Positions 4,828-15,559 of a stretch of 64,000 nt of DNA are shown piece by piece. Below the pieces are notes generated by a model. The model was given only the letters and a program-made list of their open reading frames with translations. It was not told where the DNA came from and did not search any database. The position numbers and the translations under genes are program-made. Position 1 is the first letter of the stretch, and each line of letters opens with the position of its first letter. Origin of the DNA: Thelephora terrestris (Eukaryota; Basidiomycota; Agaricomycetes; Thelephorales; Thelephoraceae). The DNA is taken from assembly GCA_015956445.1 (NCBI GenBank), contig WIUZ02000002.1:2852001-2916000 (forward strand). The letters are read 5' to 3'.

Positions 4828-7800
4828 TGCATGATGGACCCCAGGGTTGTTTTATGCTCGGTACCTCGTTGTAGCTATGGCTCCTTTCTGTTACCACTTT
4901 TATTGGGTTCCGGAAAAGCGCGTCGGGCATATTGGTCTCGGACTCCAATATTGTCTGATACTTGCCTTCTTATATTGGGTACCGTGGACATCGCGTCTTT
5001 CCCATTCCAAGTCCCCAGTCTTTTTATTTGCAAGTTTGCTACGGAGCAGACTCTCGTGGTTTCTCTTTGTTCGGTTTGTTTGCACCACTTCCCGGAGGTT
5101 GTTAATGAGCGCTTGAGTTACTTAAGTGGGTCCAACTTTTCGGAGTATTCCGTCGACCTCAGCTCAGTTTTTCCCAGCGACCCCGAAGATGCCGATCCGG
5201 AGTCTCACCGGGTGCCTGATCGTTCCACCGTCCCACCCAGGGAAATATTTTCCATGTCATCATGCAGGCTCCCATCTCTCTTGCTCGCTTCCAGGATAAG
5301 AGGCTGGAAGCAGCTAGCCTCAGTTTGCATAGCGGCTGCGAGTGGGCGAGTTCCTCCCGCAGGCGGAGTACCTTCCAAGACGCCCTCACCTTAGACGAAC
5401 ACTCCCACTTGACGACCTGGTCTGATGAGAACCAGGACGAACCAATCCAGGAAGCTCCGTGGGCGCTAGCTTTCGCCGAAGACACATTGCGGCTGTCAAG
5501 GACTTTGCCCAACGTCCTCCGTCCGCGGCAACTTTTATGCATACCAAGATAACGAACCGTTCGAGCTTCGCAAGTTTTCGCTTTTCTTCTTTACTCTCGT
5601 CGGCGGCAGATGGCATGAACACCCTGGTTCAATCATGGGGTCCAAAGAAATGAGCAGCTCTTGTGAGGATTGGGCGTCGGCGATACTGAACTCACATACT
5701 TAGTCAACAAAGCAGTTTTGGCGGTTCTCATTGGTCAACTCTCTACGCTGGCGACATCGCATTGCCACAGACAAACGGGATCTAGTAGAGTCCCCCACGG
5801 TGGTTTCGGTCAACTCTCAGCTCTTCCGATTTAAAATCAGGTGTGGGGAGTGAATTAATACCTCAGCTTCAGAAACAGTTGGAGATGATCACGAAGGAAA
5901 TCGTTCGGAGTAGGAGGAAGACGGTCCTTGACATGTATACCAGCGACGTATCCCGGACTGCAGAACGTTGGGGGGGATGTGTCGGATACTTCATTCGGCG
6001 ACATTTCCTAGGCTGGCGGCATCGTCGCTCCTTGGACAGCCCATCATGAATGTTCAAGCGCCCATGTCGTTGCGGGTCTTTGCAATGTTGCAAGCTTCTG
6101 GTACGATCCGAGCAGCGGGAAATGGAAGGTACGCCCCCGGCCGCCCATCAATCGTACCTTGATCACACATGCGGCACGCTTCCTCAGGCCCGAGGTCGGT
6201 GGAATCAAAACACGCGGCATCGAACTCCTATCTTCCCCCATTCGTCTCCCACTTCGCCATCAACACACCGCAGCAAACATCGCACAAAACACGTTGAGGA
6301 CAATGGCAAAACCCAAGCCATCATCAATCCCCGAACCACGGGGCTGCCGTTGCGTTGGGGTGACTCGTACTGAGCTCCACAAAACTCGAAAAATACCGGC
6401 CCGGACGCACTTCCGGGACAGAAACCGAGGAAACCCTTGCCCAAGACAAAATTACATACGCACTCCTATGCAGTGCGTTCATAGAAGACTTATAACTCCC
6501 GCACAACGCTGTGTCGCGAAAACTCCTCTGGCGGACTAGCGGCGTAGGCTGGAATCCAGCCTCGAATTCAGAACGAATTCGGAGGAGATTTGAGGGGGGG
6601 ACTGCTGTTGGGGGATATAGCGGCGCGGGTTTTTCGTGATCCTTGAGACGGCTTCGTAGATTCGTTCGGCATCTCTGAGGAACTCGGAACCTGCTACCCT
6701 GAAGCCGGAATTGCCGTTACGAAGGTTGGACGCCTATACGCCTCAAGACTAGTTTCGTAGACGTGGCGCCCTGCGGATTATCAATTTTCGTGAGCAGGTG
6801 CTTGAGCACTCCCCAGCAAGACGAGGCCCAGACCCACACAGCCATAAACCTTACAATACATATTCCCGGGTTCTAAGCTAACGGATTTCCACGGGGAGTT
6901 GGAAATGTCAGGAAATGTCCCAGCAAGAGGCCTCAAAATTCAGCCCTCTTCGAGTCTTCTTCTCATCAGAGCTGCGCACGTGAGAGTAGGTTCACTCGCA
7001 AGGGGGATTAGGGCGATCTCGATATACCAGGACTGACCCTGTCGATTTGTTTTCAACTCACGAATTCTGGCGACATTCACCCGAAGACGAGCGTTGTTAC
7101 CCTTGACTACGGCTGCGTCAGTGGCCTTTCACGGGGGTCTGGTGACATATACTCTCTGGGTATTTTGCATATCCAGCTGGTGACGCTTTTTGTATCGATT
7201 TGCACATCAGAGATACCCATCGTCATTCACCACGACGTTCTGCCCCGGAAATCACCGCATGAGTCACATGTCCCCCATAAGCTCCGATCCTGGGCGGGTG
7301 GGAATAGGTGGGAATAGGTGGGAATGGGGCAGCCCTGCTACTTCAGATGCCGTGGACCATCTCCGGCCGCAGAGACCCCCCGTCTGGTTGCAATCTGCGC
7401 TTGCCGACGCCGTGTGATTGCGGAACAGGCGCCTCCTGACGAAGAATATCCCCGACCTCTTCACATCCGACGACCTGCGGCCGATCATTTTGATTGGGAA
7501 GTGGCAACCTCGTGCCGGCCGTGCGTACTCATACGAAATTCGTTTTTGTTAAGAAGCACCCCCGGTTTCCAGCACTTCAAGGGGCGGGTACATCGGATTA
7601 GACACAAATAATAGATGACGTGGGTCTACGTCTATCGGTGACGGTAAATTTTTACCGAGGAAATACTCTGCGTGAACTCTTTATCCCGGGTTCTCCTTGC
7701 TTGCAATTAGCAGTTGGGGTGTTTTGTATACCAGCCGGCGTCGAAGATTCTCCGCGATTTTAGTCGTCGAACGTCACAGTTGATTGCTGCGCTTTACAAC

Positions 7801-8501
7801 GTCAGTGCATCTCCACTAGGTCTGGTGAAGAAGAACGTACAGTTGCTTCACTCGATTCGCCGATCACGGAGATCCGGGAGTTTCGTTTGAGCCACTTTCA
7901 CCAAAACCACCCTCACTGAGTCAAAGTTTACGGTATTTCCCCCTCACGTTCCATACGAGAGTGGCGTGTGATAGCCTAGAGCAAATCAGCTTTGGAACAT
8001 GTGGGCAGAGCCGAATGTACAAAAGGGTTGCCGGTTCTCCATTCCAATCATTCATCCTTTACTGAGTCAGGTGCTGGCCCCAGATATAGTCAGGCCTTAT
8101 CTACAGATTTTGCTTGTTTCCGTGGCGAGGGCTTGAGCGCTCGAGGAACCGAAGGGGTGTTCTGATAGCGCCTTTCCAGCTGCCGGAAAGGTGTGAATAG
8201 CCAATATACCGATAGCACGTCCTGTGTCCATGTGGTCTGGGGCCCAATGAATCGCGGATAGATTCACCGTTCGGAATTCTTGCGATTGTGCCAGGGTCGC
8301 CGGAAATCAGACGTTTGGGGTACGAAAGGGTGCACCTAGTACTTAATATATGTTATACTTCCCGAGTTGTTGACCTCCTTATCTACTCTAACCGACTCGC
8401 GCTACTTCGAGAAAGTGAACAGGAAATTAAGTAAGCGGTCCGGTAGTACTGCTGAGGCGGGACGGTTTTCCAATTACCACGAATCATGATGGTCCTGGAA
8501 C
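4828..8501. other. gene-poor region
   Basis: About 3.7 kb with no gene I can support. Short open stretches at 4831-5394 and 5262-5650 (+) have some protein-like character but no recognisable motif and no consistent splicing. A three-copy 10-bp tandem (ggtgggaata) lies near 7297-7325. The tract ends at the palindrome that marks the left side of the Plavaka element. Confidence 0.45.
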
Positions 8502-8524
8502 GAAGTCGATCACTGATCGACTTC
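8502..8524. repeat. perfect 23-bp palindrome at left side of transposon
   Basis: Two 11-nt arms (gaagtcgatca and its exact reverse complement) are separated by a single c. It lies immediately outside the GGCTTT-rich tract at the left side of the Plavaka element. It could be a terminal structure of the element, a target-site palindrome or a hairpin. Confidence 0.85.
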
Positions 8525-8527
8525 TAC

Positions 8528-8648
8528 AACGGCTTTAACAGCTTTGAGGCTTTCGGGGGCTTTCGAGACTCGATCATCGTCTGGTCTCGCGGGTTCGTCG
8601 ATCGGCTTTCGGGCAGCTTTCGAATGGCTTCCAGGTGGCTTTCGCGTC
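8528..8648. repeat. GGCTTT-rich subterminal repeat cluster, left
   Basis: About eight copies of (G)GCTTT, most followed by CG, in 120 bp, all pointing the same way on the plus strand. They lie just beyond the 3' end of the transposase gene. The same motif recurs at the right side of the element. Confidence 0.75.
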
Positions 8649-8733
8649 TTTCTGTCGGCCACGAAATTTCTGCACGAAGTGTTTGGGATCCATCCCATAT
8701 TGCTCATTACAATTGCCATTACAATGGTGCGTA

Positions 8734-11700
8734 CTACACAACAGTCTCAAATGCATGATAGTCAATGTACTTATTTACATAAAAATAACGGAAGTTATCA
8801 AGAGTCGTTGAGTAGTGGAGTTCCCCAGGAACAAAGTGGTCCCCAAAGTAAGGTAATAAATGGATACCACGAAGCACTGCGTCAAGATGAATGACCGATG
8901 CGTGTCGCGTATCGTTTGGGGTAAATTCCGGCCGAACGAGCCACATGCCTGTTTCCTCTTCAGGCGTGTCAGCAACGCGTTCGAACCATTCGACGAGAGC
9001 ACAGGGGTACTCAATGGCATCGTGATTAAAGGAAAAAAACAATTTTACACGTGCAACGTGAGTCCCAAGGAAACTGTCGGTTTCATTACCGGTGGAGACA
9101 AGGACGGTATCATACCGTGGGGCTGGAATATCGCCCCGTCGCCAAAGCGGAGTTGCTCGTATCCGTTGGCGATACATCCCGCATGTACCAGAGACATCAC
9201 TGGGCGCAAAGAATGTGGCAATTGCAGACGGGAAAACTGCCACTGTGGAATCTGGGTTTGGTAGGAGTGCTGGCTCAACGTCACAGCCGGGAATATCGCT
9301 ATCTGGGTTGAGTTGGTCGTAGAGGAAGTGTTGTACCAGAGCAATGAGATCATAATTGACCCGCAGACCCAAATCTGTGAAATTTGAGGGAACCTTCCGT
9401 GCTGCCAGTCAAGGTTAGCCATTATTTTCCATCAATGACAACAAGAATACCTTTCGACTTTGCCAGGATGACATGGTTGAGAATCCCAGTTGGTGGATCG
9501 ATTGCCTGTAGATCCTCGAGATCGAGTGCTGGGACCCGAGACAATTCCCGGCGGACCTCTGCGTATGGGTTCCCAGAAAGCATTCCCCTGCGGGTGAAGT
9601 CTTGTCTGCAAGCAGAAATTTTTTCGAGTCGTTGGTTTGTGACAAGAACTTGAGCAAGTGCGTTGAAACGACTGGATCTTCGCCATGGCTTTTTGACTGC
9701 AGAAATGTGGCGGGTCTCCGTAATTGATGAACACAGTCCATTTGGTGCTCCAAACAGGGCAATGCTCTCGATATAGTGAACCATCGAATGTTGACGGGGC
9801 AAGGAGAAGTTTTCTACAATCCCATGCTTTTGAAATATGGTTCGATGCTCATGAAACCGATTGAGGGCATTTTCGATGGCAGATAGATGGTCTTCATCGA
9901 TCCTGGATCTTCGTACCAGGTAACAGAAATCCAGGTATGCCGAAAACACAGAAACCACCTCTGGATGCACATGGCCCTCAATTGCAGAGAGGTAAACCTA
10001 AATTTTGTGAGACATGTGCCTCCTGAAAAAAAATCAAACCTCATACCTTCATAAGAGCCTTTGAGTCATTGCCGGTCCATTGCTTGAAGTTGCGCCCAGT
10101 TTTGAAACGCCGTAACCCTGGGTATGGTGGACACAATGCAATCCTGTTCAATCAAAAAATAATCAGTGTTATATCTTATCAATGTTGAAGAGAATCTTAC
10201 AGACCTTCTGTCAATATCACTCAGTCGCTGTCTTGCCCCCTTTCGCCCATGTACAGCAGTAAGATACTTCTCCACCCATAAAACAAGGTGGTCCTTGAAG
10301 ACACCTTTTATGATTTGATGGAGAAGGTCAGGGGAGAGCAATTCATAGATATCTGCACGTGGAAAGTTATGTGTGAAGGGCTGTGTGGATGGATAAGGCT
10401 AATCGTCAAGAGATGTCACTTAACACAAAACTCACTGTCACATAGGAGATTATCCCATACTCTGACCAAATGGTATCATGGTCAAAATGTTCAATGAGGA
10501 ACTGAGTCCACTCCTTAGTCCGAGGAATAGATTCTGCATCAAGGTCAGGTGGCTTTCCAGAGCATCTGTAATCTTTTGAGAACTGGATAAAGATCTGATT
10601 GCAGGCTGGTCACTCACTTTGGACACCAACCTGAGACAACACCTGCTAAAGCCACCTGCTCTGGATAGTCTGCAATATATGGGCCAAGTCCATAGATTGC
10701 CTTTCGATAGTGTCCATCTGGGCACTGAATAACCTCAGGCGTAGTCATCCCTTGCCGAAGTGGCTCATAGATGACCTCCAGAGAAGTGTGAAAAACTTGG
10801 CGCCTGAATTTCCTAAATTCAAGTGTGTCTTCATGCTCATGATCAGCTAAACAGAAATATTTAGCAATTGTCAAAAAGACAAGAAAAAATTCTGCAAACT
10901 TTGTGGAATGGCTAAGAATGCAATTGGTACCACTGCATCCTTATTTGAACGGCGGAAACGATTGCTGATATTGCCAGCAGACATATAAACAGGGTGATAG
11001 ACAGTGTTGCCAGTTCCAGCAGACGCAACAGTTCCATCGCTTCCACTTATTATTGGAACAAACATAGAGCCATGTGTGTTTGAATCCTTAGCAATTTGAT
11101 CCTGTCTCCAAGTCAGTAAGAGTCATAAAAAAACCTAGTTGCACATACAGCTTGGTCCCATGCCCAGTTGCCTGACATAAACTCAGACCAGTGGCGCTTC
11201 AAGTTTTTGTACTCGCGATAAGGTGCATAGTTGAATTCACCATCAAAGGTTCTGTTCTTGAGTATGTTGTGAAGAACCGTCTTGGGATCACGGTAGTAGA
11301 CCTCGAGCGGTTGCGTCATCCAGCTCGGGACTTCACCGTCAGGCAACTCTCCACCATACTTCACCTCAAACCGTTTCCATTCTGCACCACCTTCGATGGA
11401 GTCAATGATAGCCCGAAACTCCCTGCTACCACCAAATGGAGGTCCCCTTCCATCACGAGCAGCATCAGCGGCCCATAACTCCATAAGGTGATTGAACTGG
11501 GTGTTCGACATCTCTGTTTGAGTGAACAAAAGTTCGGCAAGCTCAAACTCAACACGTGACTCGAATGGTGACCAGTCAGTTGGAGGTGGCTGAACTAGAG
11601 GAGGAGGGGGAGTATCAGGGGGAAGAGGGTCTCCATTGATATCGCAAGGTGTGGCTTAGAAACCGACCGATGAGAATATTGCGCTCTCTAAAAACAGGCC

Positions 11701-11886
11701 CAACATACCATTCAGCTGTGGATGGAAAACCTTCTTGAATGATGTATCTCGGGGAGGCGGTCTCGCGTCCGTCCGATGACACGCGTTTCGATGTTGGATG
11801 AGTCCGACTCGAGTGAAAAACCCATCGCAATAGGTACAAGCGAAGAGTTTCCCTGAAAACCTTTTTTTGGGAGAAACTGCTGGCAT
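8734..11886 (-). CDS. Plavaka transposase
   Basis: Nine exons on the minus strand: 11886-11709, 11654-11149, 11101-10900, 10846-10618, 10565-10436, 10398-10205, 10143-10047, 9997-9451 and 9401-8734, summing to 2751 nt (916 aa). All introns are GT-AG and every junction restores family-like sequence. The N-terminus has a C2H2 zinc finger (C17, C20, H32, H37; FACTYCDGFFTRVGLIQHRN), typical of Plavaka proteins. Later come FRRQVFHTSLEVIYEPL, PEVIQCPDGHYRKAIYGLGP, YIADYPEQVALAGVV, FTHNFPRADIYELLSPDLLH, QWTGNDSKALMKVYLSAIEG, SLPRQHSMVHYIESIALFG, SSITETRHISAVKKPWRRSS and the closing FYVNKYIDYHAFE. These blocks are the hallmarks of the family as I remember it; I did not assign catalytic residues. An in-frame stop lies directly before the start ATG. 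No stop or frameshift is seen, so the enzyme may be active. Confidence in identity is high, slightly lower for each exact splice site. Confidence 0.88.
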
Positions 11887-12057
11887 TTAGGTCGCAAGAC
11901 GGATTGACGGGAAGCAGTGAATATGGTAGAGAATGCTCGACAAAGGCTGAGTAGGTTTGGACGATGAAGTTTGAAGTGGGAAAAAAAAATCTGAAACAGG
12001 AATATACCGGCCTCATCCTCGTCACAAAGCTCTGATTTTTCCTCCACTCTGCCTCAC
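11887..12057. promoter_or_regulatory. shared divergent promoter of the transposon genes
   Basis: Only 171 bp separate the start codons of the transposase (leftward) and the companion gene (rightward), so both must be driven from this spacer. I see no clear TATA box in either direction. The role is inferred from gene arrangement. Confidence 0.55.
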
Positions 12058-14404
12058 ATGTCCTCAGTCTCTCGCAACACTAGAAGTCGAACAAATCCCA
12101 CTGCATCCAGCCAGAACACACAAAACTCTACCGCAAAAACTTCTGGGACCGATACTACCAGGCAAGAGGCTGTTGAGAAGGCCACCGCCGAGAGAGAGGC
12201 CGTGATCGAGGAACTCGTTGATACCGAGGCCCAGATTGCAGCGAAGAGGGCGGCTAACCTGAGGTCCTTGGCCCGACCTTTGCCTAACGACAGTCAAGCT
12301 AGACTGGTTGGCAACACAGGAGATGAAAGTGGTCACAGTCGTGATCGCGGCCCGGCCGACAGCGTCTTGCGTGGTAGTGGAAGTAGAGGGAATCATAGGC
12401 GTGGTAGGGGTACCCTTGGCCTTGGTCAGGGAATCAGCCATGGTCCTAAAAAAGCCACAGGAAGGGATGGTGATGAATCTGGAGATGGTTCTGAACAGGG
12501 TGAGTCTAACGAACTACTGTGAGGACCCAAAACTTACTTGTTGTGGTGTAGGCAACGCGATGGGCGACAGCACGAGTCGTATACTACCTGATATCCAAGG
12601 TCTCCCTACTGTTCCAGCAATGAATGTTGACTTGAACGGAACAGACGCTCCTGAAAATCCCGGGGAGAAATCCGTGTCCAAGCGTGGTCGTGTTGGGGCT
12701 GGAGAGAGAGAGAAGGAGACACGCGGACGGACCGGAATGCGTGATGAGGTGGCAGAACGTCTTCGTTTACGTACCAACGGGCCTCAAGTCGTTCGCCGCG
12801 ATTCCCCGACGAGCGAGGACGATCCCGCGCCTATCACCGTCTCAAAACGGAAGAAACCTCCACCCCCACCTACGATGTAAGTAGTTCAGCCACTGTACTT
12901 GAATAACAGGAGTAACTGACCGATATTCCAGCTCTGCTGCCAAACGGCAACGGCTGGGAGACTCGTTGTCGAAGATGCCGATCTTCGGCGCCGCGACCGC
13001 AGTTATCGAGACAACCCTCGCAACAGCGTTAGCCACAACGTCTGGGGGCAACCGGTCGACTTGTGAGGACCACATCATCAACAAGAGGCTCTCCTCAAGC
13101 CAGCGTGCCCTCTCTGCCGCACAACGGCGGGCACAGGTACGCCTTATCTCACCACTGACAACCCTCTCGGTTTTTTACGTGTCCCCTAGCCCATAACGCT
13201 TGCAGTGCGCCACGAGAGCCCAATGGCCGCCAAAACCACCACACCCCGCCCAGCGACTTCCCATATCCTCGAAGATCACACCGAAGACACGGGCGACTCT
13301 GCCAGTGATACCGACGACCGTGGCATCACTCCCGGTGGTACCACTGCGCCCCGCAAGTGTGCGAAACCGAAATCAACACGAGGTCGTACCCGGGGCGACC
13401 TTCCCAAACGATACAATACACCGCCTGACACTCGGTTCGACGATCGCTTCCTCCCCGAGGTCCAATACTTGTATGGGCTCGAACCTGACCCCTGGAGCCG
13501 CCTATCCGTGTCCCTTGTTCAACGCGCTCGGGATAAGGTGTTCACCGAGTTCCAAGACACATTGTCGACAAAAAGTGCTGTGTTCAGGAATGTGTGTGAC
13601 ACTCATCTCTTTCTCATCGCCTTTACTAACTTGGAGCTACAGGCAAAAGCTTCAATCTCTACCTGGCGACGTGCTCTGCTCAAGAAAGCCAACAGGATAG
13701 TAGATACTTATTTTGCAGATGAGGAGCGCTTTGCGACAACGTCCGATATCGCACATCAAGCACGATACCTCCTTGGGGATGGTAAAGTCATACCTTGGTT
13801 GTTTGAGAATGGCCCTGACGTTACAAAGGTCGATGACGTGGTATGTAGGCTACTAATGTGTCTAAAATATTGCTAACGTGTGTTTAATAGCTATCGACGG
13901 GATACTACCGATCAACGTTCATCATTGGGACCCTCGCCCTCCACTTTGAACGCTCCTCAACACGTCCTACCACCACCCACATTCATCCTGCGGGAGCACT
14001 CGTGCTAACGCTTACTGCGGTGGGTTATGTACCTTCTTTTCGAAAGAAATCTGACACGTGATGCCCAGCTTGAGCGAACCCTCAAGTCTTGGGTAACAGG
14101 GAAGTGCGTTGCTCCATCGGGTGACTTCTCGTCGGCCAATTGCAAGGTGGACACACAGGTATGGATGAAGGGGGTGGGGAGTTTTTCCGTGTCCCGTTGG
14201 AAACGGCTGCTCACCGCCGTCGAGGATTTGAGCTCCTCGACCGATATGGCACCTGGGCCTTCGACCGCCGGAACTGGTCCTTCCCCGACCTATGACCCAC
14301 GAACACAGGCACCGCCATCTTCCGGTTCGTTCCTTTCGTTGCTGTTCTATCCAGTGTTTGAATCCCCTGTAGATGTCGAGAACGATCCCAAGCAAACCGA
14401 GTAG
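12058..14404 (+). CDS. companion protein of the Plavaka transposon, function unknown
   Basis: Six exons: 12058-12499, 12552-12876, 12932-13136, 13190-13840, 13891-14019 and 14069-14404, summing to 2088 nt (695 aa). Exon 4 contains a GT-AG stretch at 13592-13642 that is exactly 51 nt and free of stops; if removed the protein is 678 aa. The N-terminal half is low-complexity and charged: a Ser/Thr/Asn-rich start, a short predicted coiled coil (EKATAEREAVIEELVDTEA), then Gly/Arg-rich and Lys/Pro-rich segments such as SKRKKPPPPP. The C-terminal half is more ordered, with RFDDRFLPEVQYLYGLEPDP and STWRRALLKKANRIVDTYF. I recognise no domain. Its position head-to-head with the transposase inside the element's repeat-bounded unit says it is element cargo or an accessory factor, perhaps a DNA-binding or regulatory partner (inference). 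Confidence 0.72.
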
Positions 14405-14513
14405 TGTATCTATCAGGCAATTATGTGTAATTACATTACTACTTAAATGTGAAATCTCTTTCGCTTTACAATAAATAATCCCACAGCCATTTTCCGAACA
14501 GCATTGCTTCGGA

Positions 14514-14680
14514 ACGGCTTTCGAGTGGCTTTCGATCGGCTTTCGTCGCTTTTGATGGTGCCAGTTCGGCTATGGTGTTCGCCAGCTCGATTGGCTTCCG
14601 TGGCTTTTGACTTTTTGGCCTTCGATGGCTTTACTGGCTTTCAAAGCCATCAAAAGCCACGGAAAGCCATCAAAAGCGAA
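14514..14680. repeat. GGCTTT-rich subterminal repeat cluster, right
   Basis: Repeated GGCTTT/GGCTTTCGA motifs run on the plus strand to about 14640 and then invert to AAAGCC. This makes a hairpin centred on 14642 (tggcttt-c-aaagcca, 14635-14649) within a longer imperfect inverted repeat. It matches the motif cluster at the left side of the element. Confidence 0.75.
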
Positions 14681-14747
14681 TCCGCAGGTTTCCTGATGCA
14701 CACGGACCAACCAAGAAGAGAGTGGTCTTCGGTTCATCTACTGTGGG

Positions 14748-14806: not shown

Positions 14807-15559
14807 ATGTTTTTCTCAGCAGAAGCGATTGCCAAGTCGGTTTGGCTCTTCATCTCATCTATCGGAATATCACTCGCCATCCCACCTCCTCAGCCCAAGC
14901 CCCCTAAAGAATTCCGCGATAAATTCAACAGCGCATTACCAGCCTCCGACAGCAAGAGCTGTTCGGCTGCTTCATCGCCCTGGTTCGACTACAAGGCGGC
15001 CAGTGCGACATTCACCCTCTCCTATTTCCCATACATCTTCGCTTCATGGGTAGCGCTCATGAACACGCTCGACATAATCCACGCACTCGATCTATTCCCG
15101 CAGTTCATGCCCGTTGGCCACACCATCTCTGCCCGGACGCTCAACGCTCAGTTGATCACGGGCCTCACACTCACTTCCGTTGGTACCGCCATTCGTTTCA
15201 CCGCGTTCTACACGCTAGGAAAGCTGTTCACCTTCCAGCTGGCTATCCTTCCCGAACACAAGCTGATCACAAACGGGATATACGCATATTGCCGACACCC
15301 ATCCTATACCGCGACCCCGCTCATCTTTTGGGGAGTGACGTTGATGGCCACCGCGCCCGGGAGCGTGCTGTACGATTACCTCGGGGCGAGCTCGATGATG
15401 AAATTGATGAGCGTGTTGGGGTTGGCGGCTACTCGCGGTTCGTACGTGCTCGTGGCTAGGGCGGAGCTGGAGGACCAGGTCTTGCGGAGAGAGTTTGGCA
15501 AGGACTGGGAAGAATGGGTCCGCAAGGTTCCGTACAAGTTTGTCCCATATGTTTTTTGA
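14807..15559 (+). CDS. protein-S-isoprenylcysteine O-methyltransferase-like protein (ICMT/PEMT fold)
   Basis: A single 750-nt open frame of 250 aa without introns. It encodes a small multipass membrane enzyme, with hydrophobic segments near residues 10-25, 72-90, 118-140 and 170-190. The C-terminus shows the ICMT signature: HKLITNGIYAYCRHPSYTA followed by the E-D-x-x-L pair in ELEDQVLRREFGKDWEEW and the ending VRKVPYKFVPYVF. Those residues form the S-adenosylmethionine and lipid-binding core in the family. True ICMT (Ste14) methylates the C-terminal prenylcysteine of Ras- and pheromone-type proteins in the ER. Agaricomycetes carry several ICMT-like paralogues with untested substrates, and this may be one of those rather than the STE14 orthologue. 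The start ATG follows a TATA-like box by about 50 bp. The right end of a Plavaka transposon lies just upstream. Confidence 0.85.
   Translation: MFFSAEAIAKSVWLFISSIGISLAIPPPQPKPPKEFRDKFNSALPASDSKSCSAASSPWFDYKAASATFTLSYFPYIFASWVALMNTLDIIHALDLFPQFMPVGHTISARTLNAQLITGLTLTSVGTAIRFTAFYTLGKLFTFQLAILPEHKLITNGIYAYCRHPSYTATPLIFWGVTLMATAPGSVLYDYLGASSMMKLMSVLGLAATRGSYVLVARAELEDQVLRREFGKDWEEWVRKVPYKFVPYVF

What the first reader, a model, noticed from the sequence alone, without database searches (positions are those of the whole stretch)
8502..14685. A Plavaka DNA transposon with both genes unbroken
Nine transposase exons splice into one 916-codon frame with every family block in order, and the divergent companion gene splices into about 695 codons. 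Most DNA transposons in fungal genomes are decayed, so an intact copy suggests recent or current activity. The companion protein has no recognised domain and is the best candidate in this window for an undescribed function.
Basis: partly seen in the sequence, partly recalled or inferred. Interest (0 to 1): 0.7.

Follow-up and report, generated by a model that had tools for sequence, protein, structure and literature searches.

The report
Gene-complete Plavaka transposon, one end lost
This is a fungal jumping gene whose two genes still read intact but whose left end has been overwritten, so it probably cannot move itself; its "mystery" second gene belongs to a protein family that usually sits beside this kind of jumping gene in this genome.

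Summary
The two spliced genes are really there. The transposase (9 exons, 910 aa) matches Pfam Plavaka end to end. The divergent companion (6 exons, 695 aa) reads without a stop. The interpretation needs three corrections.

(1) The element is not intact. It spans 8513-14698. The right 13-bp inverted repeat is perfect. In the left one, bases 2-12 read as an exact inverted copy of the 11-bp flank, so 8 of 13 letters differ from the relatives. I found no copy of this family with both genes and both ends.

(2) Recent activity of this family is not supported. The only other piece found with companion sequence is a 627-bp fragment, 91% identical. A sister family of gene-less 905-bp elements (two copies 99.4% identical, perfect ends, 2-bp target duplications) did move recently.

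(3) The companion does have a recognised domain, DUF6532 (PF20149), only just above Pfam's cut-off. 17 of 22 DUF6532 loci in this genome lie within 12 kb of a Plavaka hit, all 17 divergently oriented. DUF6532 is therefore probably the regular second gene of Plavaka elements, a link I did not find in the papers searched. Most likely it is a TNPA-like partner binding the GGCTTT subterminal repeats; that role is inferred. The element itself is a new member of a known kind.

The parts
8513..14698 (.). Plavaka (PlavakaB-like) DNA transposon, 6186 bp
   Evidence: Alignment with three relatives that have both ends (L015, L016, L017) fixes the borders
8502..8524 (.). Scar at the left end: 11-bp flank 8502-8512, then C, then its exact reverse complement 8514-8524, standing where bases 2-12 of the 13-bp left terminal repeat should be (8 of the 13 letters differ from the relatives)
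8511..8512 (+). Left copy of presumed 2-bp target-site duplication, CA
   Evidence: Matches CA at 14699-14700; relatives have 2-bp duplications TA, AA, TT
14699..14700 (+). Right copy of presumed 2-bp target-site duplication, CA
14686..14698 (-). Intact right terminal inverted repeat CATCAGGAAACCT (read on the minus strand)
   Evidence: the 13-mer occurs 9 times in the genome, 8 of them at ends of this group of elements
8513..8762 (.). Left subterminal region, 5 GGCTTT, all on the plus strand
14449..14698 (.). Right subterminal region, 9 GGCTTT, 6 on the plus and 3 on the minus strand
8734..11886 (-). Transposase gene, 9 exons: 11886-11709, 11654-11149, 11101-10900, 10846-10618, 10565-10436, 10380-10205, 10143-10047, 9997-9451, 9401-8734 (with stop); 910 aa; PF18759; N-terminal C2H2-like zinc finger (below Pfam cut-offs)
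12058..14404 (+). Companion gene, 6 exons: 12058-12499, 12552-12876, 12932-13136, 13190-13840, 13891-14019, 14069-14404 (with stop 14402-14404); 695 aa; C-terminal DUF6532 domain (about aa 476-609). An optional last intron would give 679 aa
11887..12057 (.). 171-bp spacer between the two predicted start codons, presumably a shared divergent promoter region
   Evidence: Gene models; promoter role inferred

Best explanation
A cut-and-paste DNA transposon of the Plavaka group, probably sublineage B, with two divergent genes: a DDE transposase and a DUF6532 protein. Shown: the anatomy; the loss of the left terminal repeat; the open frames on predicted splicing; the divergent pairing of DUF6532 with Plavaka across this genome. 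Inferred: the transposase cuts at the CATCA.. termini while the DUF6532 protein acts as a TNPA-like partner, binding the GGCTTT subterminal repeats to bring the ends together and/or regulate expression. Because the left terminal repeat is overwritten, this copy should be immobile in cis. If expressed, it could still supply both proteins in trans to the gene-less 905-bp elements that carry the same 13-bp ends. The scar most likely arose by polymerase template switching, which copied the flank backwards over the repeat. The confidence given is for the element and its state; for the TNPA-like role alone I hold about 0.4.
For: PF18759 over 323 of 325 positions. Termini CATCAGGAAACCT and 2-bp duplications TA, AA, TT in 3 of 3 relatives with both ends agree with PlavakaB as described in PMC12730594 (CATCA..TGATG, 2 or 3 bp; passages read). 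Left repeat absent from the genome-wide list of the 13-mer; scar geometry. GGCTTT: 14 in the terminal 500 bp against 5 in the 5686-bp interior; 0 of 2000 simulated sequences reach 14. DUF6532: 17 of 22 loci within 12 kb of a Plavaka hit, 17 of 17 divergent, with 4.25% of the genome that close to the hits used. The window companion matches the profile of the divergent genes found at 3 of the 4 other Plavaka loci examined (hhalign probability 96.5%, E 9.6e-10). Last 116 codons of the transposase against the two 905-bp elements: dS about 1.15, dN about 0.045, ratio about 0.04, i.e. long purifying selection; against L017 (131 codons, one stop in it) ratio 0.13. TNPA binding to CACTA subterminal repeats, and trans supply of both proteins to non-autonomous copies, in PMC2613891 (passages read).
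Against: DNA binding by DUF6532 is untested. The transposase has its own weak zinc-finger-like N-terminus that could bind the repeats instead. The DUF6532 score is only just over the cut-off, and of two sister companions scanned one scores 11.8 bits and the other has no hit. The profile comparison of sister companions with three typical DUF6532 proteins is weak (probability 35%, E 4e-4). 5 of 22 DUF6532 loci had no listed Plavaka within 12 kb; one of those five has a Plavaka piece beside it, four gave none in the 4 kb looked at. 2 of the 22 loci, both linked, are below Pfam's cut-off. Distinct subterminal motifs in sister families were not clear (8 and 65 of 500 shuffles reach the observed top count). 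No transcript or strain data.
Confidence: 0.72

Rival explanations
1. One reading: a complete, recently or currently active autonomous Plavaka copy.
For: Both frames open. One disabling substitution would be 95% likely by about 1.3% neutral divergence of the two coding regions, so loss of function, if any, is recent.
Against: Left terminal repeat overwritten; no near-identical copy found; the other piece with companion sequence is a 627-bp fragment at 91%.
Confidence: 0.1
2. An immobile copy kept by the host or by chance as a trans-acting source, or on the way to domestication: genes retained, ends no longer needed.
For: Only gene-complete copy found of its family, with open frames and a broken end; strong purifying selection on the shared C-terminal stretch.
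Against: The selection signal covers the long time since the families split and is explained by ordinary transposon life. No orthologue in another species could be sought. Short time since the scar explains open frames equally well.
Confidence: 0.15
3. The left-end scar is the footprint of a failed excision: the transposase cut at the left end, the flank formed a hairpin, and asymmetric opening left an 11-nt palindromic insertion joined to a resected element end.
For: Palindrome centred at the flank/element junction with one base between the arms. Hairpin intermediates are known from RAG and Transib (recalled), and PMC12730594 places Plavaka in one group with Transib and RAG1 (passages).
Against: The replacement keeps the original length (11 bases for 11), which a template switch explains better. 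Eleven palindromic bases are long for such footprints (recalled). A single case.
Confidence: 0.2
4. The companion is not a transposition protein but an anti-silencing or host-interaction factor carried by Plavaka, comparable to the TET/JBP genes of other fungal transposons.
For: Fungal transposons, some Plavaka included, carry such extra genes (PMC12730594, passages). No fold or function is known for DUF6532 here.
Against: Pfam found no TET/JBP or other enzyme domain in the companion. The constant divergent pairing in 17 of 17 linked loci suits a core gene more than an optional passenger.
Confidence: 0.25

Closest known systems
PlavakaB DNA transposons of Agaricomycotina (PMC12730594, passages)
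   Same: PF18759 transposase, CATCA..TGATG termini, 2-bp target duplications in the relatives
   Different: Left terminal repeat of this copy is overwritten; its second gene is DUF6532, and no TET/JBP domain was found in its two gene models
CACTA/EnSpm (maize En/Spm) with TNPD and TNPA
   Same: 13-bp terminal repeats, dense subterminal repeats, a transposase plus a second, faster-changing protein
   Different: The companion has no established relation to TNPA, is a separate divergent gene rather than a splice product, and its DNA binding is untested
DUF6532 (PF20149) proteins of fungi
   Same: C-terminal domain match above Pfam's cut-off
   Different: Barely above the cut-off; the Pfam name assigns no function

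Membership tests
Plavaka superfamily | Plavaka transposase domain PF18759 | tested here: met
   404 bits, profile 3-325 of 325
PlavakaB | Termini 5'-CATCA..TGATG-3' | tested here: inconclusive
   Met at the right end of this copy and at both ends of 3 relatives; the left end of this copy is overwritten
PlavakaB | 2- or 3-bp target-site duplication | tested here: inconclusive
   2 bp in 3 of 3 relatives with both ends; CA/CA here, but two matching bases arise by chance about 1 in 16
PlavakaB | Position in the PlavakaB clade of the transposase tree | not tested
   No named reference Plavaka sequences were at hand
Intact autonomous transposon | Both terminal inverted repeats present | tested here: not met
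   Left 13-bp repeat overwritten, 8 of 13 letters differ
Intact autonomous transposon | Open transposase frame | tested here: met
   910 codons without a stop on predicted splicing
DUF6532 (PF20149) | Score over Pfam's curated cut-off of 24 bits | tested here: met
   24.8 bits whole protein, 28.8 bits domain part
TNPA-like subterminal-repeat binder | Binds the subterminal repeats | not testable with these tools
   Needs a binding assay

The most novel reading that the evidence does not exclude
DUF6532 is the regular second transposition protein of Plavaka elements, a fungal counterpart of TNPA that recognises each family's own subterminal repeats. This would give a function to a Pfam family of unknown function and make it a marker of Plavaka elements rather than of host genes.
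Probability: 0.4. Interest if true: 0.6.

Novelty: new member of a known kind. Interest (0 to 1): 0.4.

Why it matters
Plavaka elements are common in some mushroom-forming fungi but poorly characterised. If DUF6532 is their core second gene, many 'unknown' DUF6532 genes in fungal annotations are transposon genes, and expansions of DUF6532 read as host biology would be transposon copy number. One paper in the library lists both domains together as additional in two Ganoderma species; the single passage found there draws no link (PMC8955403).

Tried and rejected
Empty site or second allele: the left flank 7300-8512 has no second full copy in the assembly; the other 6 of 7 matches are short stretches at 69-70%, so no empty site could be read. 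Solved-structure relatives: the transposase gave only two chance-level matches. The companion alignment gave three weak ones, the best E 0.0006 to a chain named sc-CC-8-58 with no stretch passing on its own, judged not meaningful. Structure of companion exon 4 alone: mean pLDDT 46, helices only, too poor to search. A ninth genome copy of the 13-bp repeat (C56:557519) has neither the family's next bases nor GGCTTT in the stretch printed after it and was judged a chance match. An automatic gene model gave only 549 aa for the companion and was replaced by hand-placed short introns. Different subterminal motifs in sister families: suggestive only.

Rows dropped: I used 72 of the 132 Plavaka rows (leaving out what I took for further pieces of loci already listed; they merged into 70 clusters) and 22 of the 24 DUF6532 rows (two were second pieces of listed loci). 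Of the 22, two (C3:1267326, C56:1364311) are below Pfam's cut-off; without them it is 15 of 20. itself scored 123 of 261 candidates, so Plavaka loci are undercounted. The window's own pair is not among the 22. Some loci look like copies of each other, so the binomial P of about 1e-19 overstates the independent evidence. In the sister alignment A2 I used 3 of 4 loci; L044 was left out because another sequence follows the start of its companion. In the report's main divergence figure L017 is told apart from the two 905-bp copies because its alignment runs past the break and holds a stop.

Full report
What is there. The window lies in a 40.6-Mb assembly of 60 contigs (G000, C12:2852001-2916000). 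The sequence encodes a Plavaka-type transposase on the minus strand and a divergent second gene on the plus strand. I rebuilt both genes with short GT..AG introns. The transposase has nine exons and 910 aa, without a stop. The companion has six exons and 695 aa. The 13 introns are 47-61 bp. Pfam Plavaka (PF18759) matches the spliced transposase at E 5e-121 over positions 3-325 of 325. A C2H2-like finger at its N-terminus is weak, below the Pfam cut-offs. Splice sites are predictions; no transcripts were available.

Where it ends. Three other copies in the genome share its ends: two of 905 bp (L015 on C60, L016 on C4) and one of 3238 bp (L017 on C59). All three begin CATCAGGAAACCTACAACGG, end GCAGGTTTCCTGATG, and are flanked by 2-bp duplications AA, TA and TT. 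Applied to the window, the right end is perfect and stops at 14698. At the left, similarity starts only at CTACAACGG (8524). The preceding bases are the flank GAAGTCGATCA (8502-8512), one C (8513), and TGATCGACTTC (8514-8524), the exact reverse complement of that flank. Where bases 2-12 of the 13-bp repeat should stand there are thus eleven bases of inverted flank; 8 of the 13 letters differ from the relatives. CA precedes the scar and CA follows the right end, as a 2-bp duplication would. The 13-mer CATCAGGAAACCT occurs nine times in the genome (the same letters read backwards occur twice). Eight are ends of these elements: six in the three complete ones, one in the window, one in a truncated piece on C21. 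None is at the window's left end; the ninth (C56) looks like chance.

Is it young or active? The only other piece found with companion sequence is the C21 fragment, 627 bp at 91% identity, silent divergence 0.21 and amino-acid-changing divergence 0.043 over 106 codons. Against the two 905-bp elements, the shared last 116 transposase codons show silent divergence near 1.15 but amino-acid-changing divergence near 0.045; against L017, over 131 codons with one stop, 1.14 and 0.149. The lineages are therefore old and were kept by selection. The two 905-bp copies are 99.4% identical to each other, so that gene-less sister family moved recently. Its source was not found as a complete element: no copy that the searches returned has the exact ends plus both genes. 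Open Plavaka frames are common here: seven rows cover profile positions 1-325 or 104-324 in open frames of 738-885 aa without a stop inside, three of them with the same score (C9, C13, C59). An open frame is thus not by itself a sign of unusual youth. By simple counting, one disabling substitution would be 95% likely after about 1.3% neutral divergence of the two coding regions, so if the scar ended its mobility, this was recent or the genes are still under selection.

The companion. Pfam gives DUF6532 (PF20149) at 24.8 bits for the whole protein and 28.8 for its C-terminal part, cut-off 24. A genome-wide search for that family at E up to 0.01 gave 24 rows, 22 loci after merging, 20 of them over the cut-off. 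17 of 22 lie within 12 kb of a Plavaka hit and all 17 are divergent, whereas 4.25% of the genome is that close to the hits used and a quarter would be divergent by chance. For the remaining five I fetched the 4 kb where the transposase should be: one has a Plavaka piece (45% over 113 aa), four gave no match at E 1e-4. Upstream of four Plavaka loci related to the window's I found, in three, a divergent gene with the same order of blocks as the window companion. Their profile matches the window companion with probability 96.5%, but plain sequence searches with the window companion had not found them or gave only E 0.18 and 0.51 in two of them. Of two scanned by Pfam one scores 11.8 bits for DUF6532, the other has no hit, and their profile matches three typical DUF6532 proteins only weakly. 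The companion thus changes much faster than the transposase: 20-24% identity to the three sister companions, where transposase blocks of the four sister loci match at 39-61%.

How it most likely works. The element has the layout of a CACTA-type transposon: 13-bp terminal repeats, then crowded subterminal repeats. GGCTTT occurs 14 times in the outer 500 bp and 5 times in the remaining 5686 bp; 0 of 2000 simulated ends reach 14. In En/Spm, TNPA binds the subterminal repeats and both TNPA and the transposase are needed; such binding proteins are poorly conserved between CACTA families, and both proteins can be supplied in trans (PMC2613891, passages read). PMC12730594 groups Plavaka with CACTA/EnSpm (passages read). 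I therefore propose that the DUF6532 protein is the TNPA-like partner. The anatomy and the linkage are shown; the binding role is inferred. The competing idea, an anti-silencing passenger, is not excluded. This copy should be unable to move itself for want of a left end, but could act in trans.

The scar. Replacement of a stretch by an equal-length inverted copy of its neighbour is the kind of mutation attributed to template switching at quasi-palindromes (starts of abstracts seen in the listing, e.g. PMC3820800, PMC8604942; the papers were not opened). A failed excision through a hairpin flank is a rival reading of a single case.

What is known. Library searches: 'DUF6532' one paper, 'PF20149' the same paper, 'Plavaka' 11 papers. 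The Ganoderma paper names both domains in one list without linking them. In PMC12730594 the passages and terms I looked at mention no DUF6532 gene; its supplement was not seen. Of the 11 Plavaka papers I read passages in four, none in full. Iyer et al. 2014, cited there for these transposase groups, was not seen. The link may therefore be in print elsewhere.

Verdict. A real, gene-complete, end-broken member of a known transposon kind. The most useful finding is the pairing of DUF6532 with Plavaka across this genome.

Noticed in passing
L015:1224-2128 and L016:1280-2184: Two 905-bp gene-less elements, 99.4% identical, with perfect 13-bp ends and 2-bp target duplications: a recently moved non-autonomous Plavaka family.
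   Followed up: yes
L017:1464-4701: A 3238-bp element with the same ends holds about 2.3 kb more than the 905-bp copies, including a 371-aa stop-to-stop frame of unknown origin.
   Followed up: no
L018:3994-4563 (minus strand): The C21 remnant reads as one stop-to-stop frame joining a foreign N-terminal stretch to the last 106 residues of the companion; by eye, a similar stretch occurs in a frame of the C59 element.
   Followed up: no
window 14807-15559: One open frame for an isoprenylcysteine carboxyl methyltransferase-like membrane protein (PF04140) starting about 110 bp beyond the right end of the element.
   Followed up: no
G000 C12:1002714 and C48:2970; C12:991048 and C48:14609: Pairs of Plavaka hits with equal scores on two contigs suggest duplicated or haplotypic sequence in the assembly.
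   Followed up: no
G000 C9:237215, C13:172088, C59:1030246: Three Plavaka hits with equal scores and 774-aa open frames, perhaps a more recently active Plavaka family than the one in the window.
   Followed up: no
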